Of a DNA stretch of 64,000 bases, positions 1,704 to 64,000 are shown one piece after another. A program made the position numbers and the translations under genes. Positions within the stretch are counted from its first letter, which is position 1. Every line of letters starts with the position of its first letter. The DNA lies in NCBI RefSeq assembly GCF_010183535.1, contig NC_071331.1, forward strand, positions 2,852,001-2,916,000, read 5' to 3'. Origin of the DNA: Caenorhabditis remanei (taxonomy: Eukaryota; Nematoda; Chromadorea; Rhabditida; Rhabditidae). Under the pieces are notes generated by a model. That model did no database searches and was not told where the DNA came from. It was given only the letters and a program-made list of their open reading frames with translations.

Positions 1704-2436
1704 AAAGTTTTTGAATTAATTTTTTATTTGGAAACGTTGTAAATTAGGAACCGGTAAAAACAAATAAAGTTTCTGAAATAGGAAAGAATTAAAAATAGTT
1801 TTCAAAGAAGTCGATCTCTTACAGTTCTGTTTCATAAAAGTATTGAAACTTATCGATCAATTGTTGTCCTCAGTCAGTTTTGGGCCTTGAAGTTGTTGTG
1901 TAGTCAGGTATTTTAATCTTTGCAGATATTTCTACAGTATGAAACTGTAACACATTTCTATTTTGAGAGTGTGATTATTGAGATGCAAACGTATCTTTTC
2001 GATGACAATAGAATATTTAGGGAGATCTGTTTAGCTGAAATGCAGTTTTCAGAAAACTCCTTCAATGTTAGTTCTAGTTGCCAGAGCATACGTTAGAAAA
2101 ATATGAAAATATGAAAATTTCAAACTCAAATCAACTTTTATTGAGGCTTCTGAAGCAGTCAATTTCTGACAATTCAGTCTAAAACGTTATTTTAGACCAT
2201 GTAGTCACCATATTTCTGAATACATTTTTATTTGTTCTCAACATATATTAACGTTCTTGACAGCGGTCACTCCGAAATCTCTTCGATATGAAACGGTAAC
2301 ATTTTTCGTTTTCAAGAACTTCAAGAATCTCAAATTTTACATTTCTTCAGCCAGAAAATTACAATAGAAAAACCAAAAAATCGTTGATAAAACTGGAAAT
2401 TCAATTAGAAATCATGTTTAAAAAATCTATTTTTAG
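1704..2436. other. AT-rich host DNA with one 21U-type motif
   Basis: No coding frame is convincing here. An exact CTGTTTCA lies at 1827-1834 on the plus strand, within sequence rich in near matches such as TATGAAACTG. The stretch looks like the other piRNA-type host DNA of the window. Confidence 0.5.
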
Positions 2437-2706
2437 CATACTTGCAATGGGACGGGCCGAAGGCCCGGCTGAAAAATGTGAACTGAAATTTTGAACGAAA
2501 TTTTGAACTTTTTTGAACTTTTTCCCAAAAATGCCGAATTTTTGGCTATACTTCAAAATTCAATCAAAAGATAGTTATGCATCAAAAAATTGAAGTTTTT
2601 AATGTAAAATTTCAAAAATTTGGTAAAAAATAGGTACTTTTTTGAAGCCGGGCCTTGAAAATTCTCTTCCGGCCTGGCCCGGCCGGGCCGTAAATTTGCA
2701 AGTATG
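2437..2706. mobile_element. MITE with CATACTTGCAA termini and GGGCC-rich arms, copy 1
   Basis: The element starts CATACTTGCAA (2437-2447) and ends with its exact reverse complement TTGCAAGTATG (2696-2706). Just inside both ends are CGGGCC/GGCCCG blocks that can fold back. No transposase is present. A closely similar copy lies at 23128-23463, and two palindromic relatives share the outer CATACTTGCA at 21338 and 46559. No clear target duplication was seen, so the superfamily is unknown. Confidence 0.75.
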
Positions 2707-4299
2707 ATTTTTAGAAATTCGTATTATCATTTTCTGTACAGCTCTGCAAAACGGACTGTCCCACAAACTGATTTGGTTGTCCAGCTGAAATCCGGTAGGG
2801 TAAGAGAATTATTGAGTAAGGTGTTACTGAAAAAGATACAAATAAAAAAACAAAAGAGTTTTCTGAAACATCACAAATTTTAAACCAGAAAAAGACTCAA
2901 AATCAAAATCTCAAAAACACTATAATTTTAATGGCATACTTGTGAAACAGTGATTTGTGGTGGGAAAGTGAAGAAAACTCAAAGAAAATAGTGCAGAGAG
3001 CAAACAGGGCGCAGAAAAGTAAAAGTAGATTACCATTGATAGCTTTGATAATTTTTAAAAGTTAAATGGGCGGTCTATTAAAAAACACAAACTTTAATTT
3101 CAATTTACTTTAATGAGTTGCAAACAAAATCAACTGAGGGCTTTATTCAATATGAAATTAAAACAAGGAACTGTTTTCAGGATTACAATTTACGAGATTT
3201 CATGAGAATCACTTGCCTGTCTCGAAACTTCCTGAATATTGCTTTTGAAAATCAACTATTTCAAGCTTGGTGACATGTGCAATGTGACTTATGCAGTTAA
3301 AAAACAATTTCTGAAACGGAAATGTCGAAAATTGTTATGTTCCCGCTTCGCCACAATAATGGATTTAATTTTTTGAAATTCTGATACTTTCAAATCAAAA
3401 TACGATTTCCCTTTCAATTGCCTTCAAGAAAATGCCAAAAAAAGACTATTTTCTGTTTCGAAACTCCCAGAAAACTTGTAAATTCTTCAGAAAATTTTTG
3501 ATAGTTGAAATTTCCTGCATTTTTTTGTTATCACAAGTTCAGTTTCATAAACTGTTTGAGTTGATCGACTTATTGGATGTTTCATTGCTGAGACATATCT
3601 CAAACTTTCAAAATAACTCCAAGGCTATCATCAGGGGAATGGTCACGGAGGCCTCTTGTCATCGTAAAATTTACTTCTGGTCAGGAAGGTAATAATTTGG
3701 CAAACTTTGAACACATTTTCTCCAATACCAGGACTCGAGGGCATACTATCAAATCATTTCAAAACATTTTGTTTTTTTCCTCATTCTTTACAGTTTGAAA
3801 AAGTTTATTTGTTCTTGTAGGTTCCACACTTTCAGTTTTTGTCGCACATATCTGTTAGTGGTACGTCACGTTTCGGAAAAAGGACTATAATTTTTATTCA
3901 ATACTCATATCAATACTTTTATTATTTAACTGATCAGAGGTATTTGTTCCCTCTGTTCTTCAAGTTTCAAAACGCATGTTTTACTCTAAAAATATTTTTC
4001 AGTTCACTGCGGCTGCAGATAGTGTTTCTCTTATAATTTATCATAAGTGCATGTCCTTCTTTCAGATTAAATTTAAAAAAATATTCTGTTTCGAATTGAT
4101 TAGAAAACATATAAATTCTAAACTTTAGATAGTTTTGGGGTAATTTGTATTAAACTAATAAACCCGTTGAACAAACTACAAAATGTGCATGGTTAGTTCT
4201 GGAATGTTCACAGTGACGATTTGATAGCAAAACAAACAAAACGTTAGTTAAATCAGTACGATCACTTCGTTATCAAAACAGAGAGGCAATGCGAGTCCC
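2707..4299. promoter_or_regulatory. AT-rich host DNA, one minus-strand 21U-type motif
   Basis: TGAAACAG, the reverse complement of CTGTTTCA, lies at 2943-2950. Several near matches ending in CG instead of CA (CTGTTTCG near 3450 and 4087) also occur. Nothing protein-coding is convincing; the short open frames have no family features. Confidence 0.45.
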
Positions 4300-4415
4300 G
4301 CGGGAATTCGGTCTCGGTTCGTCCCGGTTCGTCTCGCACTCTGTCTCGGTTCGGTTCGGTTCGTCTCGGTTCGGTTTGTCTCGCATTCGGTTTGTCTCGA
4401 TTCGCAAAAAGTTCG
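4300..4415 (+). repeat. GGTTCGTCTC-type simple repeat
   Basis: The stretch is an irregular tandem repeat of GGTTCG and GTCTCG units, much more GC-rich than its surroundings. It gives a spurious Arg/Ser/Phe-rich open frame. It is probably low-complexity DNA. Confidence 0.7.
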
Positions 4416-4599
4416 GAAAGTTCATTTCTCGCAAATTACTCGCAAAGTTCACAAGACAAAGTGAACTATTCGTATTTCACGCGTTGATCATTTCTACCGT
4501 TGATTTTCTGAAAATAATAATTTGGTAATTAAAGTCGTGAACTTTTTCTAATCTCATTTCCATTTATTTTTTCTGAAATTTATTTTATTATTACAGCCT

Positions 4600-7500
4600 C
4601 TTAGTTTTTTGCAGGTATTGTTTCAGATACCTTGGAAATGCTGCGTTTTCCAGATTTTATAAGAAAAACTGAATGTTTCAAAAATATCATATTGCGTGTC
4701 AATTTCGAGTGTTTCAATATGTCATCCCTGATGGCTTTTTAAAAAACCTAGAATATGAAACTTTGATTAATTGATTTTCCTGTATTTATACAAAATTTCA
4801 ATTTAGTTTTTGATCACTTTAAATGTTCTGTTTTAAGCGGGTATTTTTATCTCGTACATGTTTTTAATTGGCTTCGACGATATTCTCTAGATCTGATACA
4901 GGTTGACTAAAAAGCAAAATTTTCAAGAAAAAATTATAATAGTGCTCACTGACAAGTGTGCTTCTTTGTGTATCTCTATATCTTTTTAATTCGTTTTTCA
5001 TACACTTTTCCCCAAAAATGGAACTCATTTGTTTTTTTTTTGTTTCATATTCTTCAATGATCGTTTTGTTTTCTTTTAGAAGATATATTTATGTCTTGTT
5101 TTGATCTTCTCATCAGAAGTGTTCTTTTCCAGTTCTGAAGAGAAAAATTCGTCTGTTTCGAAACGTCGAAAAATGTTGTCAGGTTTTTGCGTTTTCAATA
5201 AGCAAACAAAGATCAACCTGGGAGTAATGTAAGGGCCAGTACGGTATCGTAAGAATACAATTATCTTTCTGAAGTTGTTAAATTGAAAAAAATGTACTGT
5301 TTTATGTAAATTATAATTTTAATGATATTCATTTAGTGATACTTGAGTCTGATTGCTATGATCATCGAATAGTTACATTTACACTTTAACAATCAATTTC
5401 ATGAAACAGAGGAAGTTTCGCTGTTTCAGAAACATTTTAAAAGATCGTGATCGAGTAAAATAGTTAATAATCGAAACAATTCCTCATTCTTCACACGTTT
5501 TGATATGATAACTACTTAAAACAACACTTTCTCTGGGTCTCCACTGATCTCTACACTGTTTCTCAATACTTATTTGAAAGTCTTGCAATGCTGAAGTGAC
5601 GGTATTTCTTCCAGAACCTCATATCTTACGTTCATCGTGCACAGTTAAGTTTGAATTATAAGAACCCGTTTCTGCAGTTTTCTCTCGAACATTGAATACT
5701 GTTTCCAAAAGTTTAAAAAAACCATTTCGGAAAACTGTTTTGTTCCAAACAGAAGTCCGATTGTCATTACTGTTATTTTAGTCATCGGTATGCTCATTGA
5801 TGTCTTTCTTGGACTTTGTCATTAAAAATGTACTTGAAATGTACTTATGTACTTATAAAACAATCGATTCATTTTTCAAGCATACGACTTCGCAATACAC
5901 TCTGTTGCAGGAATTATAACAAAGAATTGAATATAATAATTTTGTTATGACTGGCCAGGAAATGGTTTAGAGGAATTGGAGACACAAACATCGCTCTACC
6001 GAAACAAACCTTTCCAGTTTTGGGGATTACAGATATCTCAAGGTCCAACTCATATTTCAATCGACGCGATTATCTCCCGTATCACCTTATTTCGGCTTGC
6101 CACCAAACTAGCTATTACCAAAGATTCGTTTACAGAAACATCCGGAAGAAATTAATATGATTTTTCAAATCAGCGTGTTAGAAATGGGTGTCAGTTTCAA
6201 TTTGTGTTTTTTTTTCTGATTAATATAATTACAGTTTACTGTAAAGACTTTGGGTTCACATCGCCTTTATCGTTTACCTTTTTTATTTGTCGTATATCGG
6301 TTTTATCGAACAAAATTAAAAATGTTTATGAAGTTTTCGAAACAGAGAAATCTTACTTTTTCAAAAATGTTTCAAGTTCAACACGGTCAAGGTAGTTCTA
6401 CTTTTTGATAATAATTGTAATTACGTAACCGGATTTTGTCAGCGAGTATCAATTTCATGGAACAGAAAAAATGTTACTGTTCCATGAAAATTTTGTTTAG
6501 TATTGATAGTAATACTCTAAATTAATAATAATTTACACATAATAACTAAAAGCGTGAAGGTGACAAAAAATATTTCTTTCTCTGAGTCTCCTCTGATCTC
6601 TACACTATATCTCGATACCTTTTCAAAATTTTGAATTGTTAGAGATAGACGGTTTCGGAAACCTAATTTCAGATTGCGTTATTTTTTAAATTTTGATGAT
6701 TTGTGGAACCTACGGATACACTATCGAAAACTTGAAAAATTGTCGTAAAGATAGGCCCACCTGATAATTTTCAATATTTTGTTAATTTTTTCCGTTGTTT
6801 TCACACAAACATTGTTTCGATTAGGAAAATCCACGTTTTCCTAAGGTTGTCTTTTTTCTGTATTTTTTCAGCGAAATATCTGAATTGTTAGAAGCGGTTC
6901 AGAAACCCCATATACAGAAACCCCATCCAAGAAATTTCTTCGGATTCTTTCCACATTCTATACAGTTTCAAATGCTCTGTACTTTACATACTTTTCATTG
7001 ATTTTATGTTTATTACTACGAGATTTCAGCTTCCGGGCCGGGCCGATATTTTGCAAGTCTGCAGAAAAGTTATACTGTTTCATGAACATTTTGTGATAGC
7101 AGTACGGTTTGTTCTAGCATTAAAAAGTATACTAAACAATGCCACATATGTGCACTCTAATACAATAACTACATAAAAGATTAGAAAACGGCAGAAACCT
7201 AATATAGTCAATATATCTCTTCTTATCTCTACGCTGTGTTGTTACGTTTTTCTGAAATTGAATTTTCAGAAGTGTACGGTTTTTTAAATGCAAACAAAAC
7301 CCAACGATAATTTCCTTCTAAAGATGTTGAAACAGAAAAACTACACTCTTTCACAACAAATATAATTGTAATGCTTGTAAATTCAGTTCCACTTCGTCTT
7401 CCAAACAAAAAGTTAAAACTTTTTTTTCGGAAAGCTGCGAATTCGCTCAATATCACACCCTTTACAGTAGCGAGCATAAGCGAGGCCAGATTCATACTTT
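4600..7500. repeat. Segmental duplication block A, copy 1
   Basis: This block is repeated with high similarity at about 30190-33900 and, for its first kilobase, at about 44090-45095. Shared landmarks include ATTCTCTAGATCTGATAC near 4880, 30810 and 44380, and the divergent motif pair at 5402/5421. Copy 2 carries the palindromic insertion 31840-32626, absent here, so this copy shows the empty site (AACAAAGAATTGAATATAAT near 5929). No gene is seen. Confidence 0.8.
5402..5428. promoter_or_regulatory. Divergent pair of 21U-RNA upstream motifs (block A copy 1)
   Basis: TGAAACAG at 5402-5409 and CTGTTTCA at 5421-5428 point away from each other with 11 bp between. In C. elegans the CTGTTTCA core sits about 40 bp upstream of a 21U-RNA that begins with T, so this pair predicts one short RNA on each strand, near 5360 (minus) and 5464 (plus, at a TAGT that fits YRNT). 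The same pair is kept in block A copies 2 and 3. The motif is seen; transcription is inferred. Confidence 0.6.
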
Positions 7501-9842
7501 CATATGTAACTCTGCTGTATCATGTCCGTTTTGCATTTGACAGATAGCTGAAACATCCAGTAACAAGAAAATAAGTTTTTTGAAAAATTGACATTTCAAA
7601 TTTTATCGATAATTGATTTTTCCTGACCGTGATTTGAAAATTCGGGAAAAAAAACAAATGTTAATCGAATTTTTTCAAAAGTGTATCAGTTGTAATTATC
7701 GATAAAGTTAAAAAATACTCACCTTTATGAAGTTGTTGAATCAGAAAAAAAGCACGATACTCTTTCACGAATAGTTCAAGTTCAACACGTTCATGTTAAT
7801 TTTACTTTGTTTTCCCAATCTATGTAGTATTGACTGTTGTAATCTTTAAGACGACACTGCGGTATTCTGAGTCCGTATTAAGAATCCGTCTACCTGCCAC
7901 TCTATACATTATTTTCCTAGTAATGTTATTTTGGACGGCCTGTTTGGATTTTACAGTTTTCATATTGGAAACGACCGCCCCATACTCTAAAAATGGTCTA
8001 TCAAAAGTTTTACAAAGTAATAAAAGTAACCTGACGTTGGTCCTACATATTGATTTAAATACATATAGAGTAAATCGCAAAATTTGCTTTTTTGATCGAG
8101 GTTTTCATTGAGAATGAAGCCAAGATCACCAACAGTTAATTCCCGTTTTTTGACTCGTTTTGGAACCGATATTCTATTTTGGAACAAGTTTTTACCTACT
8201 ATTGTTATCGGGAATTTACGAATTCTAAAATTAATTCTTTGAAACAGAAAACTATTGCTGCTTCATGAACATTTCAATATGATAGCGGATTACGGTCAAG
8301 TTAGTTTTGGAAAGACAGAATTTTTAATACTGCCTACATGTTTGCACTCTAATACAATAACTACAATGTATGAAAGTGACCAGAGTCTAAAATATCTAAC
8401 AGATTTGAAAAGCAGTCACATTTCTCTCACACAATGCCGTAAATTTTTCTGTTTCAGAACTTTCATAGTAATCGATTCAATTTTTGAAAATCCAATATAG
8501 CTTGATTATTGAACTCTTAAAACGTTTTTTTACAGTTTCAAAAAGTTTCTTTCATTCTGTTTGTTTTAAATTTCTCAATGCCTATAGGTCATTGAGGTAA
8601 CTAGCGTGATTCCAGTTTGTCAACCGGATCAACTAGTGACACAGCTCATCTCACAGCATCCATCGGAAGAAAGTACCACTTCATTCAGTACCCGTATCTG
8701 TACTTAGTTTAAACTAAATGGTAATATTTTATCACTTCAATTTTTCTGTTTGAAGCGAGCATTTTAATCTCAACAATCACACGTTCAAAATGTTGAGTCT
8801 CCAATCTGGAAAATAAAACGCACGTGAGGTTTGCCTGTGCGTTTCACATGGCTTCCAAACATACCATCTTCTATATTTTGGGTCAAACTGACTGAAATTC
8901 GTTGCTGTCCTTATCACTCTAAAATTGAGTTTATTTTTACAACTTTTGCCAGTTTCGTGAAACTCATTTGTTTGTTTTTTTGTTTCATATTCTTCAATGA
9001 TCTTCTTGTTTTCTTTTAGAAGATATATTTATGTCTTGTTTTGATCTTCTCATCAGAAGTGTTCTTTTCCAGTTCTGAAGAGGAAAACTCGCCTGTTTCG
9101 AAACGTTGAAAAATGTTATCAGGTTTTTGCGTTTTCAATAAGCAACGGCCAAACAGTGATCAACGTGAGCGTAATAATAACAAGCAACAATATGGAAACT
9201 ACAGTACTGGCCATAAAGAATGCGAAACTTGCAGTTTTTAGTTGAAAATGGTCAACTTTGTGACTGTAACACGGACTCCCCGATAGTCTCACAATATCGG
9301 ATAGTTTTTCTATAGTAATATCAAATTTTCTTGTCCTGGCTACTTTTGTGTACTTTAATAAAATAACTACAAAGTCTAGAAATTACTGAAAGTACCAATT
9401 TCTCTGAGTCTCCTCTGATTCGTACACATGTTCGTACACATTTTGAAACTGAACTGTGAGAATATATTGGAACATAAGCAAGAGAAGATGACTGGTCTCG
9501 GCCGAAACGCCGATTTTCTGTGCGCTAGACTGAAGTGATTGAAGACCATTCCGATTTTTTTCCTTTTTCAGAAACTTCATTTGTTCTTATTGATTTCGAC
9601 TTTTTTCAATGAATCCATTGTTTCACATGCTATTAATTTTTATGTATTTGTTGAATCAGAAAAATTGTACTGTTTAACGAATATTATAATTTTAATGATA
9701 TTGATTCACATTCAGTTCTACCTGATTTTTGAAAAATAATCCTTGAAAGTGTTTCTGAAATATGCGAATTAGCACAGTATAGCTTACAATATATATATTG
9801 TCATCGAGAAGTTACGTTTGGAAAATCAAGTTCGTGAAACAG
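7075..9842. promoter_or_regulatory. Cluster of single 21U-type motifs, 7.1-9.8 kb
   Basis: Exact plus-strand CTGTTTCA lies at 7075-7082 and 8449-8456. Exact minus-strand copies (TGAAACAG) lie at 7328-7335, 8240-8247 and 9835-9842. Each is in AT-rich DNA that recurs elsewhere in the window; for example the surroundings of 8240 match 45424, and those of 7075 match 33562. Predicted 21U-RNA starts are about 40 bp downstream of each core. Confidence 0.55.
7820..8190 (-). pseudogene. Decayed LINE ORF2 C-terminal relic
   Basis: On the minus strand two overlapping frames spell a broken C-terminal part of a LINE protein: KRELTVGDLGFILNENL at the 5' side (about 8090-8150), then RLLLLLCKTFDRPFLEYGAVV and NNITRKIMYRVAGRR (about 7865-8040). 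This resembles the region after the reverse transcriptase catalytic motif in CR1-type LINEs (D-LG, then LLEYG and a TRK/TRR motif). A frameshift separates the parts. At least a dozen related relics, all on the minus strand, occur in the window. Confidence 0.6.
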
Positions 9843-10218
9843 AAAAGTGTCACTGTTTCTTAGGCATTTCTAATTGTAAGTGAGCATTTCTATTCTAGTA
9901 TGAAATTTCTAAAAAACTAGTGAGAATTGCTATCGAAACTCTTGTAGTCAGGTGATGTTTTAGAAATACTCCAAAAAACTGAAGTTTCGTCTCTGAAGCA
10001 TCCAAAACCAGGAATTTGGAAACCGAGACACTCGAAAAACTCGTAAACCAGACGTTTTAATTCTAATTGTAAAGAAAAATCACTGAAAATCAAGGCTAAG
10101 CTAAAATTTCTGCCCAAAAAACCTCTCTGTTTGACTTACAAAACAATAAAGTTACATTATTCTTCAGACCACTATGTTCTTAGACAAAATGAGAAATGCC
10201 TTCTGATGCGAAAAACTC
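9580..10218. repeat. Repeat block C, copy 1
   Basis: This stretch recurs at about 22550-23090, 47760-48270 and 58440-58960, with landmarks AAGTTTCGTCTCTGAAGCAT and AAAAAACTAGTGAGAATTGC. It carries the minus-strand motif at 9835. No gene was recognised. Confidence 0.75.
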
Positions 10219-10788
10219 AAAATGATTCCATTTACTACTGAAAACGTGGAAAAAACAACTGTTTGGATTCAATTGCAAATAACTCCGCTCAAAGTTGATA
10301 TTTTTCCAAAATCTTTTTTGTAATAGGTTCACAAATAAATGAGTCAAATCACCGATAACGTTTCAGAATAGTAGTCATTTCTATTTCAGAGAAATAAGAC
10401 ATCAAAGTCAAAAAATGCACAAAAAGTGATTTCGCGTGATATTGAAGTTTTGTTTTTGAAGATAAAACAAACAGAAATTGATGTTAAAACATGTAAAACA
10501 TGTAAAAACACATTAAAATGTGATTTCGTGTTATCCGAAACCATTTCCACCTAAATAATTTTTCTGAAAATCAACTGAAGATTGGTTTTCTCAGGTGGTC
10601 CTAAAGATATTTCGCGGCCAAAAAAGTGACTTTTTGATGGTACAAGGGTATGAAAAGTGATAGGTTCATGAAAATTTGTGTCCGGGAGTTATTTTAGATT
10701 CGGAATCGATTGGCATTCACAGATTTTTGATATTTTTTCTGGGTTTTCCAGAACCCCCTAATTTGAGGGGGGTCCTAAAGATATTTCG
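10219..10788. mobile_element. Tc1-like element remnant with one recognisable terminus
   Basis: The right end reads GGGGGTCCTAAAGATATTTCGCGCACTG followed by TA at 10789-10790. This is related to the terminus of the fold-back Tc1 element at 25924-27540, and the inner sequence (AATCTGTGA-TGCC-ATCGATT, CAAATTTTCATGA on the opposite strand) matches that element too. The block GGTCCTAAAGATATTTCGCG is repeated near 10595, like the inner repeat of an IR/DR-type end. The left end cannot be placed exactly; host DNA is recognisable up to about 10218. No transposase remains. Confidence 0.55.
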
Positions 10789-10790
10789 CG

Positions 10791-11739
10791 CACTGTATCT
10801 CTGCCGCAACAAAACATTCCAGTTTCGGAAACTTTTTAAATTTCAGGTTCCAGTTCTTGTTTCAATCTGTACTCGCATATATCACACCCGTTTTCAGCTG
10901 GCTAACAGAAACAATTTTGGAAAAAGGGTGTTTTCCAGAAACTTCCGAAAAAGTTGGTAAATGTATTACTTTGCAATCAACATGTTAGATGTTCCAGTTT
11001 CAATTCGTTTTCAAATGAGGGTATCTTAGTAGCGACATTATCCAAAAAAACCTGAACGTTTTTTACTTGTTCTTATAAGAATCTTGTTCATTCTACAAGG
11101 TTTATCAATGCTAATACAATCTAGTCTCGATAATGGATGAAAATAAAGCCTTGTTTCAAAAATTCTCAGAGATTTCGTAATACTCTATCACAGTTTCATT
11201 AATTTTGTAAACTGAATGACTGGTTTGGTCGGTAATGGTCGGGTAAAATACATTTCTGAAAAACTTTCTTAATTGTTTATTACAAGTTCATTAACTTTCA
11301 AATTTGATTGACTATTTTTTTCCGGAATTTCCGAACAATTTCGCATTTTTCGACTTTGCCGCTAGTTTTTGCATGGACTTATTGTTCGATTCGCCGTTTT
11401 AAATCATCAAATTTGATTTTTTCTGAAAACCACAGCCGTCTAAACGGACAAAGTTTATAAGTTCTTACCTTTTTTAGTGCTGCTGAATCAGAAAAAAGTT
11501 ATACTGTTTCACGAATAGTTCAAGTTCATCAGGGTTAACTTAATTCTAATTCTCGCGGGCTTTGCGTTTTTGATATTGAGAATGATTGAGAATGAAGCCA
11601 AGGTCTCTAACTGTAAGTTCCCGTTTTATTGGCTCGTTTTGGAGCCGATATTCTACTTTAGTTGGATTTAATCCGACTCATCTATTGTTATGAATTCTGA
11701 AATTAATTTCTTGAAACAGAAGAGTGTTACTGTTTTATA
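10791..11739. promoter_or_regulatory. Host repeat DNA with 21U-type motifs
   Basis: Exact motifs lie at 11504-11511 (plus) and 11712-11719 (minus). The region matches about 48780-49740 and 60000-61430, including the module CCAGTTTCGGAAACTT near its start. A LINE relic module (TGAGAATGAAGCCAAGGTCT) is present at 11585-11660. No gene is seen. Confidence 0.5.
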
Positions 11740-11747
11740 AAAATTTC

Positions 11748-12972: not shown

Positions 12973-12980
12973 GTACACAC

Positions 12981-55215: not shown

Positions 55216-56689
55216 CCAGCAGAAAGTTCGCGGCTACGCCGCGATTTTCGCTGGATTCAGTTGGCTTGAAGGTTGTGAGTAGGAGTTGCTGGAAATAATT
55301 TTCTGAATCCAAATAAGTTTTTCAGATGAATGTAATGTTAATATGATTCACTCTCTTTCTCTTTCATTTTTGTTGAGGATGCTGCCGAAAAAAATTCTCT
55401 GACTTTTTTTCTAAACTTTAAGAAAACATCAAAAAACGATAAAAGTGTTTTCACTAAACCAAAGAACTCTTCGTGAATGTATAACCCTTTCACGTAAATT
55501 CCCGCCGAAATTCAAAAATTTCTTTAGAAGTTTCTAGAAAGTTCCAGAACATTTGAATTCCCGCCGAAATTCAAAAGTTTCTCTAGAAGTTTCTAGAAGG
55601 TTCTAGAATATTTGAATTCCCGCTGAAATTCAAAAGTTTCTCTAGAAGTTTCTAGAAGGTTCTAGAATATTTGAATTCCCGCTGAAATTCAAAAGTTTCT
55701 CTAGAAGTTTCTAGAAGGTTCTAGAATATTTGAATTCCCGCTGAAATTCAAAAGTTTCTCTAGAAGTTTCTAGAAGGTTCCAGAATATTTGAAATCCCGC
55801 CGAAATTCAAAATTTTGAATTGCCGCCGAATTTATTTCTTGAAGTTCCTGGAAGATTCTCAAATATTTGGATTCTAAAATCGGAAGTATTTCTGGAAGTT
55901 TCCGGAAGTTTCTAGAAAATTCTGGAAAAATCTTGAAACTTCCGGATCTTCTGGTATCTTCTGGAAGGTTCTGGAAAAGCCTAGAACTTTTTAAACGGTT
56001 CTATTAATTTCTGAAATTTTCTAGAACTCTCTGGAAGTTTCTAGAAGTTTTTGAAAGTTTCAAGAAGTTTCTGGAACATTCTGGAAACTTTTAAGAATTT
56101 CTGGATGTTGCGGCCAAACTGGCTCAAATTTTCGGAGTATTGTGTTAAGGTGCCTAGGGAGTCACAACCAAATTATGGGCCCCGTATTTTCAGTTTTAAC
56201 CTGCTTTTCCGATTTTTGGGTTACTGTAGCTACAGTACCCTTTCAGGGGTATGGCAGTGGAAATCCTGCAAAGTCTCTCGAGGAAAAGTACGGGACTACA
56301 GAGTTAAAAATTTATCAACGTACTCAATCTGTGGGGATCTGAACCTTCCAAGGTATTCAGATTCGACTGTTAATGTTCAAAACTCTGTAACTACCGTAAT
56401 CCTACAGTAACCGACCCATCTTTTTTTGGGTGCCATGCTGAGGGGTCAAGGTTGTTACCACCCCAGTCTGGTCTCCCCTCGTTCTGTTTGGAACCCTTTT
56501 TCATTTTTTGGGTTACGGTTGCTACAGTAATCCTACAGTAATCTGACACCCAGGGTCCAAAAAATTGAAGCGCTCGGAGGTACATGATTATACCCCCAAA
56601 CATCTTTTGGAACGGTTCAGAGAGAAAAAAGTTATTCAGGGAGAAGCGTCGGACGGACAGACAGAACTATTCCATTAGTAGGAAGAAGA
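55216..56689 (-). mobile_element. Non-autonomous Helitron, minus strand
   Basis: Read on the minus strand, the element begins TCTTCTTCCTACTAATGG at 56689 and ends at 55216 with CTGG, preceded by a perfect hairpin CGCGGCGTAGCCGCG (55229-55243) 9 bp from the end. It sits between A and T, as Helitrons do. The empty site is seen in the duplicate at about 15200 (CTCACATACTTACA, then ATTTTTT), which fixes both ends. There is no Rep/helicase frame, so it moves, if at all, by rolling-circle replication with help in trans. The 119-codon open frame at 56051 has no family features. Confidence 0.85.
55497..55855 (+). repeat. 59-bp tandem repeat with heat-shock-element arrays
   Basis: Six units start at 55501, 55560, 55619, 55678, 55737 and about 55796. 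Each holds CTCTAGAAGTTTCTAGAAGG and then TTCTAGAA, i.e. runs of alternating TTC and GAA 2 bp apart, the binding pattern of heat-shock factor. Further TTCNNGAA units continue to about 56090. Helitrons are known to spread HSF-1 sites in Caenorhabditis; binding here is inferred. Confidence 0.85.
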
Positions 56690-59479
56690 TTTTTTTCTCA
56701 TAATTCATTTGGTTTTTTGATTTCATAATTTTGTTAATGATTTCACTTCAAAACAATCGCTGTTTAAATAATTATTGTTTTGAAGTGATATGAGTATGCA
56801 GGGATTTTTTGCTTCTCCAATTTTTCTTTTTTTATCTGTTTCGAAATGACAAAAAATGCAGTTAATTTTTAAATCTTTCAATGACACAATGAAACACCTT
56901 TTAATAAAAAAACAATAGCATCGGAAAAAATATGATAGCTCATGTTTCTGAAGTTGTTGAATAAGAAAAAATTATGTTGTTTTATAAATATTTTTATTTT
57001 AATGATATAAATTAATTTGATATTGTTCTACTAAAAGACCATTCCGCGGAGTTCCCAATAAATTAGATGCACCTTTAAACATAAAATTCTGGTTCAGTGT
57101 TGGATTCTTTGTTTTATATGAATGTTGATGAAAATGGGTTGTACCAATCGACAAATTCAATAAATTCTTACTGTATGAAGTTGTTGAATCAGAAAAAACA
57201 AGATACTCTTTCACGGATAGTTCAAGTTCAACACGATTAACTTAATTCCGATCCAATGAGGCAGTATGCGTTACTCTTTTCATGAAGATATTTTGCCCAG
57301 CCTCTATGGATTTTACAGTTTCGGTCGTCTTGGAAATGGAAGTCCCATACACCAAAAAAAAACCGATATTTTACTTTGGTTCAATTAATTATAAATTCAT
57401 CTATTTGTTTTCATCTAAATAAATTCATCTATTATTATCAAGAAGTTTTAAATTCTAAAATTAACTTTTTGAAACAGGAAAGTGTTACTGTTTCACGAAC
57501 ATTTCAATATGATAGCGAATCACGGTCAAGTTAGTAAAGACTATCTCTTGTGCGCTCTGATACGATAACTACAATATCAGAAAATAACAGAAAACACCAA
57601 TTTCTCTGCGTCTCCTCTGATCTCTACACTATGTTTTCAAATATGTTTTCGGAGTAGTCAAAAGTAGCGAAATAGTCATTGTCGATGTCGGAATCCTACA
57701 AAAACTGTCTCAGAATTTGACTGTTTCATAATCTCTATCAAAACCGGTATATTTTTGTACTGCTAATAGATTTTAGGATCATTCTGAAAGTAACCAAAAA
57801 AAGATGATTGACAACTTGTTAATCACCAATTTACGGTGGGTTGCATAGGAACGATTATTTTAATAAAACCCATTTTTTATTCACTCTTGAAAAATGTTGA
57901 AGAAGCTTCCAAAATTACATTAATTTTTTCATTTTTTCATCTCTTCGGTTCCAATATCTTAGAGGCGCCGAACCACTATGTTTCAATGATTTTCTGAAAC
58001 TGATATGTTAGAGACTGACTGTTTCAGAAACTCCATTAAAGTATGTGACATCTTTGAAGTTCTGATGATCTTGACCAATTTTTTATATAGAAATCAATAA
58101 AATTATGATTGAAATTCTTAAAAACAGGGTACTTTTTATCAAATTAACTTCCCCCACCATTCTTATCTGTGTCGGTTCCGGTTAGACTGATCGAGCATGG
58201 CGCTGTAATAGTCTATACTTATCCGGGCTGAGGTTTACTTCAGTAGACGCGGGTTTGAATCCTCCCGGGTTAGAAATTAAAGAAAAACAAATTTTTTTTT
58301 TCAAATTCGTAAAATTTTGATCCGTTTCATCTGCCATTTTTAAAGGTTTGTCATCCGTGCATCACTAGTGAAAAGTACTTGAACGTGGTCTTTGGCAGAT
58401 GAATCCGATATCCCGCGCTTTTACCGATTCTCTGAGATTTCCGAAAAACATAATCTTTGAAAGTGTTTCTGAAATATGCGAATTAGCACAGTAGAGCTTA
58501 TCATTTCTATATTGTCATCGAGAAGTTACGCTTGCAAAATCAATTTGACGAGACAGAAAAGTGTCACTATTTCTTAGGCATTTCTAATTGTAAGTGTGCA
58601 TTTCTATTCTAGATCGGTATTAAAAAGTCGAGTTTTACTAGTTTTTTTTCCAGAAAACTATCTGTTTCGAAATTTCTAAAAAACTAGTGAGAATTGCTAT
58701 CGAAACTCTAGTAGTCAGTCGATGTTTTAGAAATCCTCCAAAAAACATAAGTTTCGTCTCTGAAGCATCCGCGAAACCAGACATTTGGAAACCGAGACAC
58801 TTGAAAACCTCTTAAACCGGGCGTTTTAATTCTAATTGTAAAGAAAAATCACTGAAAATCTAGACTAAGCTAAAATTTCTGCTCAAAAAAACTCTCTGTT
58901 TCACTTACAAAACAATAAAGTTACACTATTCTTCAGACCACTATGTTCTTAGACAAACTGAAAAATGCCTTCTGATGCGAAAATTCCAAAAATCGTAAAT
59001 TTTGCTGGAGTAAATTCTTTTAAATCAAACGGATTCAAAGCTCTTATGTTTCTTTTCCACAGTTTCCGAATCACCAATCCTTGGTGTTTTACAATCAGAT
59101 TTGAGTTATAGGAACCGGTTTCTGTACACTTTTCTCAAAAAATTGATGGTTCTCAAAATTTTTTACAGTTTTGGAAAACTCATTTTTACGTTATTTTTGT
59201 AATTTCATTGATGTGACTATTTTTTTTCCTTGTCACTTTTATAGCTTGCATTTTGAAAAACAATATGTTTCAAAACTTCAAAAAAATCTGTCAATTTCCA
59301 AAATATTTCGATATCAGACTATAGTCTCAATAAAATGCAATCATTTTGCCGCGACGGTCCAGGAAATGATTTAGATTTACATTAGAGGATTTGGAGACAC
59401 ATCTCTATGCCGCAAGAAAACATTCGAGTTTCAGAAACTTCTTACATTTCAGGTTCCAGTTCTTGTTTCAATCTGAGTA
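56690..59479. promoter_or_regulatory. Host repeat DNA with 21U-type motifs, 56.7-59.5 kb
   Basis: Exact motifs: divergent pair 57470-57477 (minus) and 57488-57495 (plus), then 57721-57728, 58019-58026 and 58896-58903 (plus). LINE relic modules lie at 57250-57370 (minus). A short unmatched piece at 58090-58310 includes GGGTTTGAATCC. No gene is seen. Confidence 0.55.
57470..57495. promoter_or_regulatory. Divergent pair of 21U-RNA upstream motifs
   Basis: TGAAACAG and CTGTTTCA stand 10 bp apart in the module AACAGGAAAGTGTTACTG. The related module at 15804 keeps only the minus-strand core. Confidence 0.55.
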
Positions 59480-59611
59480 TTATCGAAATAAACAAGTTCC
59501 GACATTTTTTCCTCGTCGGTGTTTGCGGACTCAAGCCAAAATTATCAAATTTTGGCTTGAGTCCGCAAACACCGAGGGGGAAAAAATGTCGGAACTTTTT
59601 TGTTGCGACAA
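59480..59611. mobile_element. Near-perfect palindromic MITE with TA target duplication
   Basis: Arms of about 50 bp (AAGTTCCGACATTTTTTCC through CTCAAGCCAAAATT and the reverse) surround a 4-bp loop near 59545. The outer TTATCG and CGACAA also pair. TA flanks it at 59478-59479 and 59612-59613. The copy at 24198-24210 shows the empty site GAGTAACACGG. It has landed inside the 8-bp target duplication of the next element. Confidence 0.85.
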
Positions 59612-59614
59612 TAA

Positions 59615-59992
59615 CACGGCTGTGCGGAAGTAAAATTTTTCAAAAGGAAAGAAGGAAGAAGAAAGTGAAAAAAGACCCGGAAGAAGGAAGAAAGAAGGAA
59701 GAAGGAAGTTGGGTTCCGAACCGGGAAATCGGAAGTTCATTTTGAAAATGACAAATTTGAGGAAACTTTTTTCTAGTCATCTCTGAAAACGAATTTTGAT
59801 GTTGTTTCATACAAAATTCCGCCAAAATTCCGTCGAAAATTACAAAATTTTAGTAAACTTTTTAACGGAAGAACGAACAAGGAAGAAGGAAGTGAAATTT
59901 TTAAAAAGGAAGAGGGAAGAAGGAAGAAGGAAGTGAAAAAGGCCCGGAAGAAGGAAGAAGGAAGTCGAAGGAAGGAATTCCGCACAGCTCTG
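59615..59992. mobile_element. CAGAGCTGTGCGG MITE with GGAAGAA repeats, 8-bp target duplication
   Basis: Left end CACGGCTGTGCGGAAG, right end CCGCACAGCTCTG. The duplication CTGAGTAA is intact at 59993-60000, while its left copy is split by the palindrome (CTGAGTA at 59473-59479, TAA from 59612). The interior segment with AAATCGGAAGTT-ATTTTGAAAATGACA matches 12645-12800, so this is the fuller form of the element at 24206. Confidence 0.8.
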
Positions 59993-60000
59993 CTGAGTAA

Positions 60001-61472
60001 GTAGATCGGTCAGATATCACACCCGTTTTCAGCTGGCTAACAGAAACAATTTCGAAAAAAGGGCGTTTTCCAGAAACTTCCGAAACAGTTGGTATGTGTA
60101 TTACTTTGCAATCACCATGTTAGATGTTCCAGTTTCAATACGGTGTCAAATGGGGGTCTTACAATTAGTAGCGACATTATCCAAAAAAACCTGAACGTTT
60201 TTTACTAGTTCTCATCAGAATCTTGTGCATTCTACAAGGTTTATCGATGCTAATACAATCTAGTCTTTAATTGGCTAGAAAACCAACCATTGTTCCAGAA
60301 ATCCTTAGAAATTTCGTAATACTCGTTCACAGTTTCATCAATTTTGTAAATTGATTGACTGGTTGGATCGGTAATGCAATCTCACAAAAGATTCTGAAAA
60401 TCTATCTGAATTGTTTATTGCAAGTTCAGTTTCATCAACTTTTCAAATTGATTGACTAGTTGTTTCTTCAATAAAATCCGTGTTTTCATTTTCCTTCACT
60501 CCTACTCTCGCCTTAAGATATTTGATCGAAAACGTTTAGGAAAATTTCATGAAGTCATCTTATCGGTGTAAAAGTAAGGTCACATTTCTCTGCATTTCCA
60601 TTTCTATGATGTTTTTGAAATAAAAATCTCGAACATTGTCCTGTTTTCTTTTCTCACATAGTGACAATTTTCTACAGTTTCGGAAAACTCATTTCATTAT
60701 ATAAAATTGGTTTGATTGTTGAAATTTCGATGATGTCTTTTACGCATTCTTTGTAAGACTCATGTATGGTAACAGTTTGTAATTATTTGAAACGTTTTTT
60801 ATTCTTTTTCCAACAAAATAAATCAAAAATGGGGAAGACTTATCCCTGACAAACTTCAGAACAACATGGCGTGGGGGTCATGGAGACACCAATGCCGCTC
60901 TACTGAAACAAATCTATCCAATTTCGGAAACGGCTGATATCTCAAGCTCCAAGTCAGTCATGTTTCAGTTTTGTCTCCCGTTTCAACTTGCCAGTTATGT
61001 TTTCAAGCAGTTCAATCAATTTTTAACATGAATTTCTTGTTCATTGTTTGATTCTTCGTTTTAAATCATCAAATTTGATTTTTTCTGAAAATCACAGCCT
61101 TGTAAACGAACAAAGTTAATTAAATCTTACCTCTTTTAATGCTGCTGAATCAGAAGAAAGTTATACTGTTTCACGAATAGTTCAAGTTCATCAGGGTCAA
61201 CTTAATTCTAATAATCGCGGGTTTTGCGTTTTTGATCTAGCTTTTTATTGAGAATGATTGAGAATGAAGGCAAGGTCTCTAACTGTAAATTCCCTTTTTA
61301 TTGGCTCGTTTTGGAGCCGATATTCTACTTTAGTTGGAAAATAATCCTATTCATCTATTGTTATCGAAAAGTTAGGAATTCTAAAATTAATTTCTTGAAA
61401 CAGAAGAGTGTTACTGTTTTATAAACATTTCAATATACATAATAGCGGATTGCGGTCAAGATAGTGTTAATA
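60001..61472. promoter_or_regulatory. Host repeat DNA with 21U-type motifs
   Basis: Exact motifs: 61166-61173 (plus) and 61396-61403 (minus). The stretch matches 10870-11720 and 48850-49780. A LINE relic module is at 61215-61335 (minus). No gene is seen. Confidence 0.5.
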
Positions 61473-61480
61473 GTGCACAC

Positions 61481-61678
61481 CAGAGTTGAATTCCGACTTC
61501 CGACTACCGACTTCCGGATAAGGAATTTTACTTCCGACTTCCGTCATGGAATTCACGAAAAGTACATTTCGCAGAAATACATTGAAAAATTATCTAAAAG
61601 GATAAAAACGGGCTTTAAAAAAAATCTAATTCCGACTTCCGACTTCCGTATAAGGAAAATCACTTCCATGCAACTCTG
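61481..61678. mobile_element. CAGAGTTG MITE with CTTCCGA repeats, 8-bp target duplication GTGCACAC
   Basis: It has the same shortened left end as 49794 and a further internal deletion (TTTAAAAAAAATC where 49794 has over 60 more bp). The flanks are GTGCACAC at 61473-61480 and 61679-61686, where the other copies have GTACACAC. Confidence 0.8.
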
Positions 61679-62380
61679 GTGCACACACTAAAATTACAAT
61701 GTCTGAAAGTGACTGAAAACACCAATTTCTCTGCGTCTCCTCTGATCTCTACACTATGTTTCAATAGTTTCTCTGAGTAGTTAATAGTAGCGAAATAGTC
61801 ATTGACGATGTCGGAGATCCGTCTGAACTGAATTTGACTGTTTCAGAATCTCTATTAAAATTGGTTTGTTTTTGAGTTGCTGATCAAAACACAAGTACAG
61901 GTGGGTTTTGGAATATATTTCAAAGTAACCAAAAAAGAGGATTAACAACTTTTCAGTGTGTTTATTAAAAAAGTCACTCAGTTTTGAAAAAAATTGAAGT
62001 GGTTTCCAAAATTACATTAATTCTTTCTGTTTTTCATCTCTTTGGTTCCAAATATCTTAGAGTCTTCGAACCACTATGTTTCAATTGTTTTCTGAAACTG
62101 ATCTGTTAGAGACTGTCTGTTTCAGAAACCCAATTAAAGTATGGGATATTAAATTCTACTGATGCAAGTTCTTCACATTTCTTTCCGTACCTGACTTTCC
62201 GCATGCTTTGAGCTTTCCCATGATACTTATTAGAACAGCACGCTTGTTAGAACTGCGCTCTACTGAAACCGAAGAAAATTGTGTGGGAAATTGAGAGACT
62301 GAGAGAAAAAGAGACATTTCCAAAAGAGATTTCGGGGGAGCGCAGTTGTAAGACATGGGCTGAGCTACTATCATTTTTAT

Positions 62381-62482
62381 TCTAGGCTCCGCCTCCACAG
62401 CTAATTCAAGTACTGTAACCAGTGAAGCGTCTGGCGCAGAAAGTGTGCCCCGACTCCCACTTTTTCGGGGCGGAGACTAAAA
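62381..62482. mobile_element. Short MITE with (T)CTAGGCTCCGCC termini
   Basis: CTAGGCTCCGCCTCC at the left pairs with GGGGCGGAGACTAAA at the right, with CCCGACTCCCAC in the core as in the other two copies. It is the longest of the three. Confidence 0.6.
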
Positions 62483-63679
62483 CGCGAACAGATTTTTCAA
62501 AGACACATTTCTCTGCGTTTTTCTGATTTCTTTGTTATTTCTTGAAACCAAAATGTAGAATATATTCATATTTCAGAAGTTCCATAGTAATTGGGTCAAT
62601 TTTTTGAAACTCTGATGGCATGTTGCAATTGTAAATGTTGAATATTAAAAAAAAATAAAACTCCAATATATTTCATGTACTTCTCGTGGTGTCTCTGATG
62701 TAGTCTTACTTGAATCTTTCCATTGAACGTTTATTTTTAAAGTTTTCATTTTGCAAAACAATCTGTTTCAGAACTTGAAAAAATTCTCTCCATTTCCAAA
62801 AAGTTTCAATACAATTATCGTAAATTATAGAAAACAATAAAATGCAAAGAAATTATTTAGATTGACTTTAGAGGGTAGAGGCACATCTCTCTGCCGAAAC
62901 AGATTATTCCGGTTTTGGAAACAAGCAATATGTAAAGTTCCCGCTCATTCTTCAATATGATCTTCGACAATTCAAGTCACACCCGTTTTCAGCTTGCCAA
63001 CATAAACAGTAATAGACGAAGCGTCTTTTAGAGAAACTTCCGAAAAATTGGTATATTTCTTTGGAACTGCTATGTTAGATGTTCAGTTTCAATACTTTTT
63101 CAAATGAGTTCGTCCACAAATGCATGATTGTTATTTTCGTTTTCCAAAAAACCGACTAAATTGTCATCAGAATAGTCATATGTATGTATCAAAACGTATA
63201 AAGTCTTGCAAATTCTACTTCTGGATGCTAATACAATCTAGTCTTTTGGCTAGAAAAGCAGCCATTGATCCAGAAATTCTCAGAATATTCCTAATACTCT
63301 TTTACAGTTTCATCAATTTTGTAAATTGATTGACTGGTTGGGTCGGTAATGCATGATTGAAATGGGTTATTGAAAAACTTTCTGAATTATTCATTACAAG
63401 TTCAGTTTCATAAACTTTTCAAATTGACTGACCAGTTGTTTCTTCAATAATCCAGAATTCTCTCATAATATTTTATCGATAACCTTTAGGAAAAGATTAT
63501 GAAGGCATCTCATCAGAGTAAAAATTAAGTCACATTCCTCTACATCTTTTTCTTCTTTCAATAATATTTTTGAAATAAAATCTCAAACAATGTCCTTACT
63601 ATATTTTACTTATGAATCAGAAAAACACTGGATACTCTTTCACGAATAAGTCAAGTTCAACACGATTAACTTAATTCCG

Positions 63680-63960
63680 ATGATGCTCTGCATTACTCTT
63701 TTCTTGAAGGTATTTTGCACAGCCTCTATGGATTTTACAGTTTCGGTCGCCTTGGAAATGGAAGTCCCATACTCTGAAAAGGTTTTATAAAACAAAAAAG
63801 TTACCTGCCGTTGGTCCTACAGAATGATTTAAGTATAGAGTAAATCACAAAATTTTCTTTTTTGATCGAGTTTTTTATTGAGAATGAAGCCAAAGTCTCT
63901 AACAGTTAATTCCCGTTTTATTGGTTCGTTTTGGAACCGATATTCTACTTTGGTTTCAAT
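63680..63960 (-). pseudogene. LINE ORF2 relic at the right edge
   Basis: The minus strand holds the DNA for RELTV-DLGF(I) (module TGAGAATGAAGCCAAAGTCT) and for the block after it, with stops. It matches 18130-18400 closely, so both descend from one duplicated relic. Confidence 0.45.
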
Positions 63961-64000
63961 TAATTGTGGAAACAAAATTTCATCTATTGTTTTCAACATA

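What the first reader, a model, noticed from the sequence alone, without database searches (positions are those of the whole stretch)
1704..64000. Window is probably a 21U-RNA (piRNA) gene domain
I counted about 61 exact CTGTTTCA cores (40 plus, 21 minus) where about 2-3 are expected from base composition (rough estimate). CTGTTTCA is the core of the C. elegans type 1 21U-RNA upstream motif; the same setting (AT-rich, gene-poor, motifs on both strands) is seen here. Duplicated blocks inflate the count, so copies are not independent, but cores are often kept where flanks have drifted.
Basis: partly seen in the sequence, partly recalled or inferred. Interest (0 to 1): 0.9.

Follow-up and report, generated by a model that had tools for sequence, protein, structure and literature searches.

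The report
piRNA gene cluster with replaceable guides
This stretch of a roundworm chromosome looks packed with tiny genes for 21-letter guide RNAs that protect the germ line, and comparing duplicated copies suggests that the gene switches are kept while the guide itself is sometimes swapped for a new one, a possible answer to how worms invent new guides.

Summary
In detail: 62 exact CTGTTTCA (41 plus, 21 minus) against 4.7 expected. The 21U-RNA reading is supported from sequence: a YRNT lies 37-40 nt after the core at 57 of 62 sites (18.2 of 21 families; controls 6.8), and in 59.9 of 74 families sampled elsewhere on the contig (controls 23.6). By recalled sizes the contig is C. remanei chromosome IV. 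15 of 17 samples at 1.3-7.3 Mb hold several cores, so the window is part of a multi-megabase domain. The two repeat families searched genome-wide lie within 125 kb: local duplication, not a dispersed transposon.

New here: between duplicates the core is kept (0.97 per base), flanks drift (0.83), but nucleotides 2-21 of the predicted RNA differ far more (0.575; 77 window pairs). 29 of 35 families show it. Most decoy 8-mers, and cores without YRNT, do not. Change looks stepwise: most close gapless pairs keep the body, a few have it largely replaced. I read this as birth of 21U genes by duplication plus product replacement, probably driven by selection for new guides; transcription-linked mutation is not excluded. 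No small-RNA reads were available.

The parts
1..64000 (.). Segment of a type 1 21U-RNA (piRNA) gene domain; 62 exact CTGTTTCA cores, 57 with a predicted 21-nt product (54 distinct, some differing by one to three bases)
   Evidence: domain extent
57721..57728 (+). Core of the locus with the clearest recent replacement of the 21-nt body
57767..57787 (+). Predicted 21U RNA, derived body: 11 of 20 nt (nt 2-21) differ from the 16052 copy while 113 of 115 flank bases agree; no second copy of its first 17 nt found in the genome at up to 1 mismatch
16052..16059 (+). Core of the sister locus keeping the older body
16098..16118 (+). Predicted 21U RNA, older body, also present unchanged at C4:2940264-2940284
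5402..5428 (.). Head-to-head pair of cores (minus 5402-5409, plus 5421-5428), 11 bases between; copies at 31330-31356 and 45049-45075
49709..49734 (.). Head-to-head pair of cores, 10 bases between
57470..57495 (.). Head-to-head pair of cores, 10 bases between
32871..32907 (.). Head-to-head pair of cores, 21 bases between
45365..45385 (-). Predicted 21U RNA of the largest local family (core 45424-45431 minus); identical body at 8181-8201
18399..18419 (-). Predicted 21U RNA of the same family with another body (core 18458-18465 minus); 19 of 20 nt shared with the copy whose core starts at C4:2939982
24864..24884 (-). Predicted 21U RNA of the same family, third body type; 17 of 20 nt shared with the copy at 15745-15765
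20688..22899 (.). Largest duplicated block, 92% identical to 45909-48107, carrying three cores
4779..5928 (.). Duplicated block, 92% identical to 30706-31839, carrying a head-to-head pair

Best explanation
The window is part of a multi-megabase type 1 21U-RNA domain on chromosome IV of a Caenorhabditis (C. remanei PX506 by recalled assembly sizes). Shown from sequence: each unit is a CTGTTTCA core (or a permitted variant), an AT-rich spacer of 37-40 nt and a YRNT whose T would be the first base of a 21-nt product; such units recur on both strands; local duplication has multiplied them; between duplicates the core is conserved, flanks drift, the first T mostly stays, and nucleotides 2-21 show excess change, concentrated in some pairs. 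Inferred from C. elegans: the core recruits the USTC, Pol II starts at the YR, a short capped RNA is trimmed to 21 nt and loaded on PRG-1. Inferred, about 55% on its own: copies that acquire a new guide are favoured, because an identical second guide adds nothing while a changed one adds a new target; multi-base changes are favoured because guide-target pairing tolerates mismatches. This would make duplication plus product replacement the way new 21U genes arise here. The confidence given is for domain, units, duplication and excess change of the product together, not for the driver.
For: Enrichment 62 vs 4.66. Fixed YRNT spacing: 57 of 62 sites, 18.2 of 21 families vs 6.8; outside the window 59.9 of 74 families vs 23.6. 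Domain: 15 of 17 samples at 1.3-7.3 Mb have 2-16 cores per 10 kb, three at 0.1-0.9 Mb have 1, 0, 0. Core identical in 174 of 208 copy pairs vs 2856 of 8055 control 8-mers. Body vs flank identity: 0.575 vs 0.834 (77 window pairs), 0.527 vs 0.797 (104 pairs with another locus), 0.528 vs 0.803 (9 pairs wholly outside the neighbourhood); random placements in the same alignments average +0.01 to +0.03. 29 of 35 families have body below flank, sign p 1.2e-4; 12 of 14 families wholly outside the neighbourhood. Specificity: six core variants with YRNT show the dip; CTGTTTCA without YRNT (10 sites, +0.079) and TTGTTTCA, TTTTGAAA, TTCTGAAA, TTTTCAGA do not. Boundaries in 35 gapless pairs: T 1.00, nt 2-21 0.80-0.84, nt 22-27 0.94, flanks 0.89-0.91. 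Stepwise: of 16 non-redundant gapless pairs 12 differ at 0-3 of 20, four at 6, 6, 11, 16; with stricter flanks 8 of 11 and three (6, 6, 11), dispersion 172 against simulated maxima of 61 and 93. Polarised case: 16052 and the copy at C4:2940218 share 20 of 20 body bases, 57721 has the closer flanks but 9 of 20.
Against: No RNA data. Six of 35 families go the other way. In most close gapless pairs the body is not faster than the flanks: in the 12 of 16 pairs with 0-3 changes it has 13 of 240 differences against 123 of 1377 in flanks; the excess rests on four pairs there, three under the stricter rule, and the dispersion leans much on the 57721/16052 pair. Copies whose core is broken (GTTTC lost) still show a smaller dip, 31 of 36 pairs, -0.193 against -0.286, though some of those cores may work and the partner is always an exact core; in 7 gapless core-lost pairs there is no clear dip. 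In the pairs with another locus, identity recovers only near nt 26-31 and the first T is 0.90, not 1.00, which blurs the edges. TTTCCAGT, a decoy with 6 sites, shows -0.101 and CTATTTCA, 5 sites, -0.043. The low-Tm downstream signal described for C. elegans is weak here. Pairs inside a family are not independent, and the 14 outside families come from five places on one chromosome.
Confidence: 0.82

Rival explanations
1. Same 21U domain, but the 21-nt body changes because transcription damages it: Pol II pausing or the RNA-DNA hybrid over this short unit causes breaks that are mended with complex changes, without any advantage of new guides. (A rival only to the driver named in the best explanation.)
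For: The dip goes with a live-looking core and YRNT, that is, with expected transcription. Changes are clustered blocks and indels, with transitions:transversions 41:88 in bodies against 117:131 in flanks, as complex repair would leave. In the pairs with another locus the low-identity stretch runs on to about nt 26-31, as far as the capped precursor would.
Against: In 35 gapless pairs nt 22-27, inside the usual precursor but trimmed off, are as conserved as the flanks (0.938), and the two bases before the T are 0.96 and 1.00. Purifying selection on initiator and terminator could mimic both edges, so this is not decisive.
Confidence: 0.27
2. The bodies are exchanged: short gene conversion copies the 21-nt unit from other 21U loci.
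For: Body types recur in copies whose flanks are not the closest, e.g. cores at 2870465 and 2939982 share 19 of 20 with flanks 0.83/0.79.
Against: The new body of 57721 has no other copy found in the assembly at 17 nt and up to 1 mismatch (one case only). Of 12,880 pairs of fetched sites only 8 from different families share 14 of 20 body bases, none more. Recurrence fits plain descent as well.
Confidence: 0.1
3. A dispersed transposon or satellite happens to contain CTGTTTCA, and nothing is transcribed as 21U RNA.
For: 57 of 62 cores have an aligned copy in the window.
Against: In the two families searched genome-wide the copies are local: 19 of 19 and 25 of 25 listed matches lie on C4 within 2.838-2.963 Mb (the tool calls its counts lower bounds). 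84 further families among the sampled sites outside the window have the same core, and unrelated families share the YRNT spacing.
Confidence: 0.02
4. The dip is an alignment artefact.
For: Bodies are often gapped, and gap placement is arbitrary.
Against: It remains in gapless pairs, random placements in the same alignments lack it, and most decoy 8-mers processed by the same script lack it.
Confidence: 0.04

Closest known systems
C. elegans type 1 21U-RNA loci (two clusters on chromosome IV)
   Same: CTGTTTCA core, AT-rich spacer (literature about 35-42 nt, here 37-40), YRNT with T as first base, chromosome IV (PMC3597512, PMC6317315: passages seen); both strands
   Different: Many loci here are recognisable local duplicates, some with replaced 21-nt bodies; I found no such description in the passages seen
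C. briggsae piRNA clusters (chromosome IV 0.02-7.1 and 13.0-15.0 Mb, chromosome I 9.8-12.0 Mb)
   Same: Left-arm chromosome IV cluster of like extent, same motif (PMC9683057: passages seen)
   Different: That paper writes that piRNA sequences are under little selective pressure and that the source of new piRNA genes is undiscovered; the present data suggest duplication followed by replacement of the product
C. remanei 21U-RNAs profiled in earlier work
   Same: C. [quoted passage not shown] elegans and C. briggsae (PMC6468775, a review: passages seen)
   Different: The primary paper was not held, so whether these loci were listed there is unknown
Conotoxin and similar gene families (recalled)
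   Same: Conserved leader, hypervariable product, expansion by duplication
   Different: Protein coding; here the product is a 21-nt RNA and only the pattern is compared

Membership tests
Type 1 21U-RNA locus | CTGTTTCA core, above chance | tested here: met
   62 vs 4.66 expected
Type 1 21U-RNA locus | YRNT about 35-42 nt after the core | tested here: met
   57 of 62 sites with 37-40 nt between core and T; 18.2 of 21 families vs 6.8 control
Type 1 21U-RNA locus | AT-rich spacer | tested here: met
   spacer GC 0.286 vs 21U body 0.359, 161 sites
Type 1 21U-RNA locus | Pol II pausing signal: low-Tm stretch just downstream of the 21U | tested here: inconclusive
   GC 0.304 at +25..29 vs about 0.34 further down; weak, no test against genome background
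Type 1 21U-RNA locus | Clustered in megabase domains of chromosome IV | tested here: met
   15 of 17 samples at 1.3-7.3 Mb with 2-16 cores per 10 kb; 0-1 per 5 kb in 7 of 8 samples from 9.7 to 24.8 Mb; chromosome number recalled from contig length; other chromosomes were not sampled
Type 1 21U-RNA locus | 21-nt 5'-U, 3' 2'-O-methyl RNA bound by PRG-1 | not testable with these tools
   no small-RNA reads; the divergent block of nt 2-21 is indirect support only
Type 1 21U-RNA locus | USTC (PRDE-1, SNPC-4, TOFU-4, TOFU-5) binding and H3K27me3 chromatin | not testable with these tools
   needs ChIP
Dispersed transposon carrying the motif | copies on many chromosomes | tested here: not met
   two families tested: 19 of 19 and 25 of 25 listed matches on C4 within 125 kb
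Gene family with product under diversifying selection | product diverges faster than linked flanking sequence | tested here: met
   29 of 35 families; random placements and most decoys do not; that the flanks are neutral is assumed
Gene family with product under diversifying selection | excess of fixed over polymorphic product changes | not testable with these tools
   one genome only

The most novel reading that the evidence does not exclude
New piRNA genes arise here by local duplication of a promoter cassette followed by stepwise, often wholesale replacement of the mature guide (nucleotides 2-21, first U kept), so that 21 flank families with 62 cores in one 64-kb window encode 54 distinct predicted guides: an evolving repertoire with constant promoter and variable product, kept by selection for new guides or made by a process aimed at the transcribed unit.
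Probability: 0.65. Interest if true: 0.85.

Novelty: new variant of a known kind. Interest (0 to 1): 0.7.

Why it matters
Worm piRNA sequences are poorly conserved between species, and a 2022 paper asks how new piRNA genes arise, suggests a yet undiscovered mechanism, and says the sequences are under little selective pressure (PMC9683057, passages seen). Duplicated loci in one genome give matched pairs in which promoter, product and flank can be compared directly. If the product really changes faster than its surroundings, and in blocks, the guides are not idle: they are being renewed. The divergence footprint may also mark 21U products and working promoter variants from DNA alone, without small-RNA reads.

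Tried and rejected
Simple count statistics were set aside after finding duplication; I used family-weighted counts instead. My first reading of the YRNT position from unweighted columns (T at +40 from the core start) was wrong and came from duplicates; family weighting gives +45 to +48, mode +46 outside the window (in the window +46 to +48 are about equal).

A scan for any 19-column dip with gaps allowed was uninformative on its own because indels make many dips elsewhere; a count per distinct position with gapless neighbourhoods separates them: 50 of 303 body positions vs 1164 of 53,907 others (with gaps allowed 281 of 541 vs 8832 of 78,568).

Copies with a broken core as a negative control were not clean, because several broken cores may be active variants and the partner is always exact; decoy 8-mers and cores without YRNT served better.

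One of the 16 gapless pairs (L004) has an upstream flank that runs out of its duplicated block, so its flank divergence is overstated; one search repeats the test with stricter flanks, without it and four others.

A donor for the replaced body of 57721 was sought and not found. tRNA genes and Rfam families at gathering scores: none in the window. Literature: the searches aimed at 21U duplication, selection, bidirectional promoters or diversity listed nothing that describes hypervariable 21U paralogues by title or start of abstract; one search listed 20 of 543 papers. I saw passages of nine papers, none whole, so absence from print is not shown.

Rows dropped before counts: alignments under 120 or 150 bases; sites without YRNT; copies with fewer than 7 of 8 core bases in the summaries; pairs whose body or flanks change length, which favours conserved bodies; sites too near a sequence end.
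Full report
WHERE IT IS. The window is C4:2852001-2916000 of a genome of 130,466,896 bases in 186 contigs; C4 is 25,790,997 bases long. These sizes match, from memory, the C. remanei PX506 assembly with C4 as chromosome IV; no tool named the species.

THE OBSERVATION. 62 exact CTGTTTCA occur (41 plus, 21 minus), expected 4.66 with sd 2.48 and a maximum of 12 in 100 shuffles. It is the most frequent of the 840 permutations of its letters. The whole genome has 19,000 matches against 6,781 for the reversed 8-mer, so the window, at 9.7 per 10 kb, is about 6.6 times denser than the genome mean of 1.46.

THE DOMAIN. In 10-kb samples, 15 of 17 between 1.3 and 7.3 Mb hold 2-16 cores, two GC-rich ones (4.1 and 5.7 Mb) none; three samples at 0.1-0.9 Mb hold 1, 0 and 0. 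Two more at 4.89 and 4.91 Mb, chosen for their neighbour, hold 8 and 12. Eight 5-kb samples from 9.7 to 24.8 Mb hold 0, 0, 0, 1, 1, 1, 7, 0; the 7 are at 23.2 Mb, where the next 10 kb hold 28. So the left arm carries a domain of at least 6 Mb, its left edge between 0.9 and 1.3 Mb, its right edge beyond 7.3 Mb and not located, and a second dense spot lies near 23.2 Mb. Other chromosomes were not sampled. The C. briggsae cluster on chromosome IV spans 0.02-7.1 Mb (PMC9683057, passages seen).

SPACING. With families weighted equally, a YRNT has its T at +45 to +48 from the first base of the core (mode +46 outside the window, 38 nt after the core). In the window 57 of 62 sites and 18.2 of 21 families have it, against a mean of 6.8 (maximum 12.3) for control windows of the same width; outside the window 59.9 of 74 families against 23.6 (maximum 37.2). 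The C. elegans spacer is about 35-42 nt (PMC3597512, passages seen). Of 13 variant cores tested, CAGTTTCA and CTGTTTCT (0.71), CGGTTTCA (0.68), ATGTTTCA, GTGTTTCA and CTCTTTCA (0.62), CTGTTTCG and CTGATTCA (0.61) carry YRNT well above their controls of 0.28-0.34; CTGTTTTA (0.59 vs 0.38), CTTTTTCA (0.44 vs 0.30) and CTGTTTCC (0.44 vs 0.32) less clearly; TTGTTTCA (0.32 vs 0.26) and CTATTTCA (0.36 vs 0.32) hardly (not weighted by family). The number of loci is therefore probably larger than 62.

PREDICTED PRODUCTS (core start and strand > 21-nt positions): 1827+>1874-1894; 2943->2882-2902; 5402->5344-5364; 5421+>5468-5488; 7075+>7121-7141; 7328->7267-7287; 8240->8181-8201; 8449+>8496-8516; 9835->9777-9797; 11504+>11550-11570; 11712- none; 13441+>13488-13508; 13729+>13776-13796; 13864+>13912-13932; 14130+>14177-14197; 14884+ none; 15804->15745-15765; 16052+>16098-16118; 16598+>16644-16664; 17004+>17050-17070; 18458->18399-18419; 19269->19210-19230; 21166->21107-21127; 21720+>21768-21788; 21897+>21942-21962; 23992+>24039-24059; 24923->24864-24884; 25106+>25153-25173; 25425+>25472-25492; 27634->27576-27596; 31330->31272-31292; 31349+>31396-31416; 32871- none; 32900+>32948-32968; 33007+>33053-33073; 33562+>33608-33628; 35984+>36030-36050; 37409- none; 37964+>38009-38029; 44800+>44846-44866; 45049->44991-45011; 45068+>45115-45135; 45424->45365-45385; 46385->46326-46346; 46940+>46988-47008; 47114+>47159-47179; 48641+>48688-48708; 49709->49650-49670; 49727+ none; 50218+>50264-50284; 54221+>54266-54286; 54489+>54535-54555; 57470->57411-57431; 57488+>57535-57555; 57721+>57767-57787; 58019+>58066-58086; 58896+>58942-58962; 61166+>61212-61232; 61396->61337-61357; 61838+>61884-61904; 62117+>62163-62183; 62763+>62810-62830. 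The 57 products comprise 54 distinct sequences, some differing by one to three bases. Where several YRNT fit, +46 was taken first, then +47, +45, +48, so single positions can be off by a base or two.

DUPLICATION. 40,150 of 64,000 bases lie in self-alignments of at least 120 bases, and 57 of 62 cores have at least one copy. Blocks run up to 2.2 kb (20688-22899 with 45909-48107, 91.6%). Two families searched genome-wide match only on C4 between 2.838 and 2.963 Mb (19 of 19 and 25 of 25 listed; the tool calls its counts lower bounds). So these are local duplications.

THE BODY CHANGES MORE. In aligned duplicates the core is kept (174 of 208 copies identical, against 2856 of 8055 control 8-mers; per-base identity 0.97), flanks lie near 0.87, and positions +46 to +66 fall to 0.72 (mean over cores). 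Pair by pair, nt 2-21 have identity 0.575 against 0.834 for flanks in 77 window pairs (69 below, 8 above), 0.527 against 0.797 in 104 pairs involving another locus (95 below, 9 above), and 0.528 against 0.803 in 9 pairs wholly outside the 2.84-2.96 Mb neighbourhood (9 of 9 below; these 9 are among the 104); placing the frame at random in the same alignments gave mean differences of +0.01 to +0.03, and none of 5000 draws reached the observed value. By family, 29 of 35 are below (217 pairs; sign test p 1.2e-4, Wilcoxon 2.1e-5), and 12 of 14 families wholly outside the neighbourhood, which come from five places. In 35 gapless pairs the T is 1.00, nt 2-8 0.803, 9-14 0.840, 15-21 0.838, nt 22-27 0.938, upstream 0.893, downstream 0.907. 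In the larger gapped sets the T is 0.95 (window) and 0.90 (with other loci), and for the latter recovery is later, near nt 26-31.

CONTROLS. The same script at other 8-mers with YRNT at the same offset: TTGTTTCA +0.022 (16 sites), TTTTGAAA 0.000 (44), TTCTGAAA +0.018 (27), TTTTCAGA +0.056 (13), GTTTTCCA +0.009 (4), CTTTGTCA +0.127 (1), CTATTTCA -0.043 (5), and one decoy with a dip, TTTCCAGT -0.101 (6 sites). Without YRNT: CTGTTTCA +0.079 (10 sites), TTGTTTCA +0.036 (22), TTTTGAAA +0.022 (94). With YRNT: CTGTTTCA -0.211 (92 sites, 79 below), CAGTTTCA -0.169 (40, 32 below), CTGTTTCT -0.186 (7), GTGTTTCA -0.173 (4), CTGTTTCG -0.125 (14), ATGTTTCA -0.083 (30, 21 below). Thus the spacing test and the divergence test, which use different information, broadly agree on which cores look live. 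The other variants were not put through this test.

STEPWISE. In 16 non-redundant gapless pairs chosen by flank identity alone, body differences are 0-3 of 20 in 12 pairs and 6, 6, 11 and 16 in four; a clock-like model gave a dispersion of 16 on average and 83 at most in 5000 simulations, observed 285. The value depends on how pairs without flank changes are treated (245 against 68 on repeat) and leans on the 57721/16052 pair; with stricter flanks 11 pairs remain, 8 with 0-2 and three with 6, 6 and 11, dispersion 172 against simulated maxima of 61 and 93 in two runs. In the 12 quiet pairs the body has 13 of 240 differences and the flanks 123 of 1377; in the four others 39 of 80 against 43 of 462. 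So the excess is not a steady faster clock. The clearest case: 57721 and 16052 agree at 113 of 115 flank bases but differ at 11 of 20 body bases, while 16052 and the copy with core at C4:2940218 have 20 of 20 identical bodies with more distant flanks, so the 57721 body is the newer one on the simplest reading. No second copy of its first 17 nt was found in the genome at up to one mismatch. Transitions to transversions are 41:88 in bodies and 117:131 in flanks (Fisher p 0.004; pairs not independent).

READING. Domain and units: shown from sequence. Transcription by Pol II, USTC, trimming and PRG-1 loading: inferred from C. elegans. Why the body changes: selection for new guides is my preferred reading (about 55%), because the edges in gapless pairs fit the mature RNA rather than the longer precursor and because block changes are what a guide that tolerates mismatches would need. 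Transcription-linked mutation (27%) needs only that pausing is mutagenic. The copies with a broken core, which still show a smaller dip (31 of 36 pairs), do not settle it.

LIMITS. One genome, no reads, no relatives. Families are few and neighbours share history. The genome could be sampled only in part (281.5 kb fetched beyond the window). Papers were seen as passages only, and the primary C. remanei small-RNA paper was not held.

Noticed in passing
L035 (C4:23205001-23215000): 28 exact cores in 10 kb, 26 of them on the minus strand, 21 with a YRNT at about the usual offset, and only two duplicate pairs found: a very dense, one-sided second spot of the domain.
   Followed up: partly
window 5402/5421, 31330/31349, 45049/45068, 49709/49727, 57470/57488, 32871/32900; L014 2262/2311, 8833/8882, 9607/9656; L007 (two); L031: Of 13 neighbouring exact-core pairs within 60 bases in the window and L001-L032, 12 are head-to-head, one tandem, none convergent; gaps of 10-11 bases (6 pairs, some copies of each other) and 41 bases (3 pairs) recur, suggesting shared bidirectional 21U promoters.
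   Followed up: partly
window 51135-54110 (+): Open frame of 991 codons with DUF1759 and, below the curated cut-offs, reverse transcriptase and zinc-knuckle matches: looks like a BEL/Pao-type retrotransposon inside the domain.
   Followed up: no
window 25921-27543: Two inverted arms (99.2% identical, 605 bases) with a DDE_3 transposase fragment at 26364-26726: looks like a recent Tc1/mariner-like insertion.
   Followed up: no
window 55497-56109: Tandem 59-bp repeats (5.4 copies, 96%) and looser ones rich in TTCTAGAA, resembling heat-shock elements (resemblance recalled).
   Followed up: no
window 11741-12381: Satellite-like arrays of about 20 bp with units such as GGGACGT and ACGTCCC in opposite orientations, forming a long inverted repeat.
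   Followed up: no
all fetched loci: TTGTTTCA is the odd one among first-base variants: it shows hardly any YRNT enrichment and no product divergence, while A, G and C in that place show both.
   Followed up: partly
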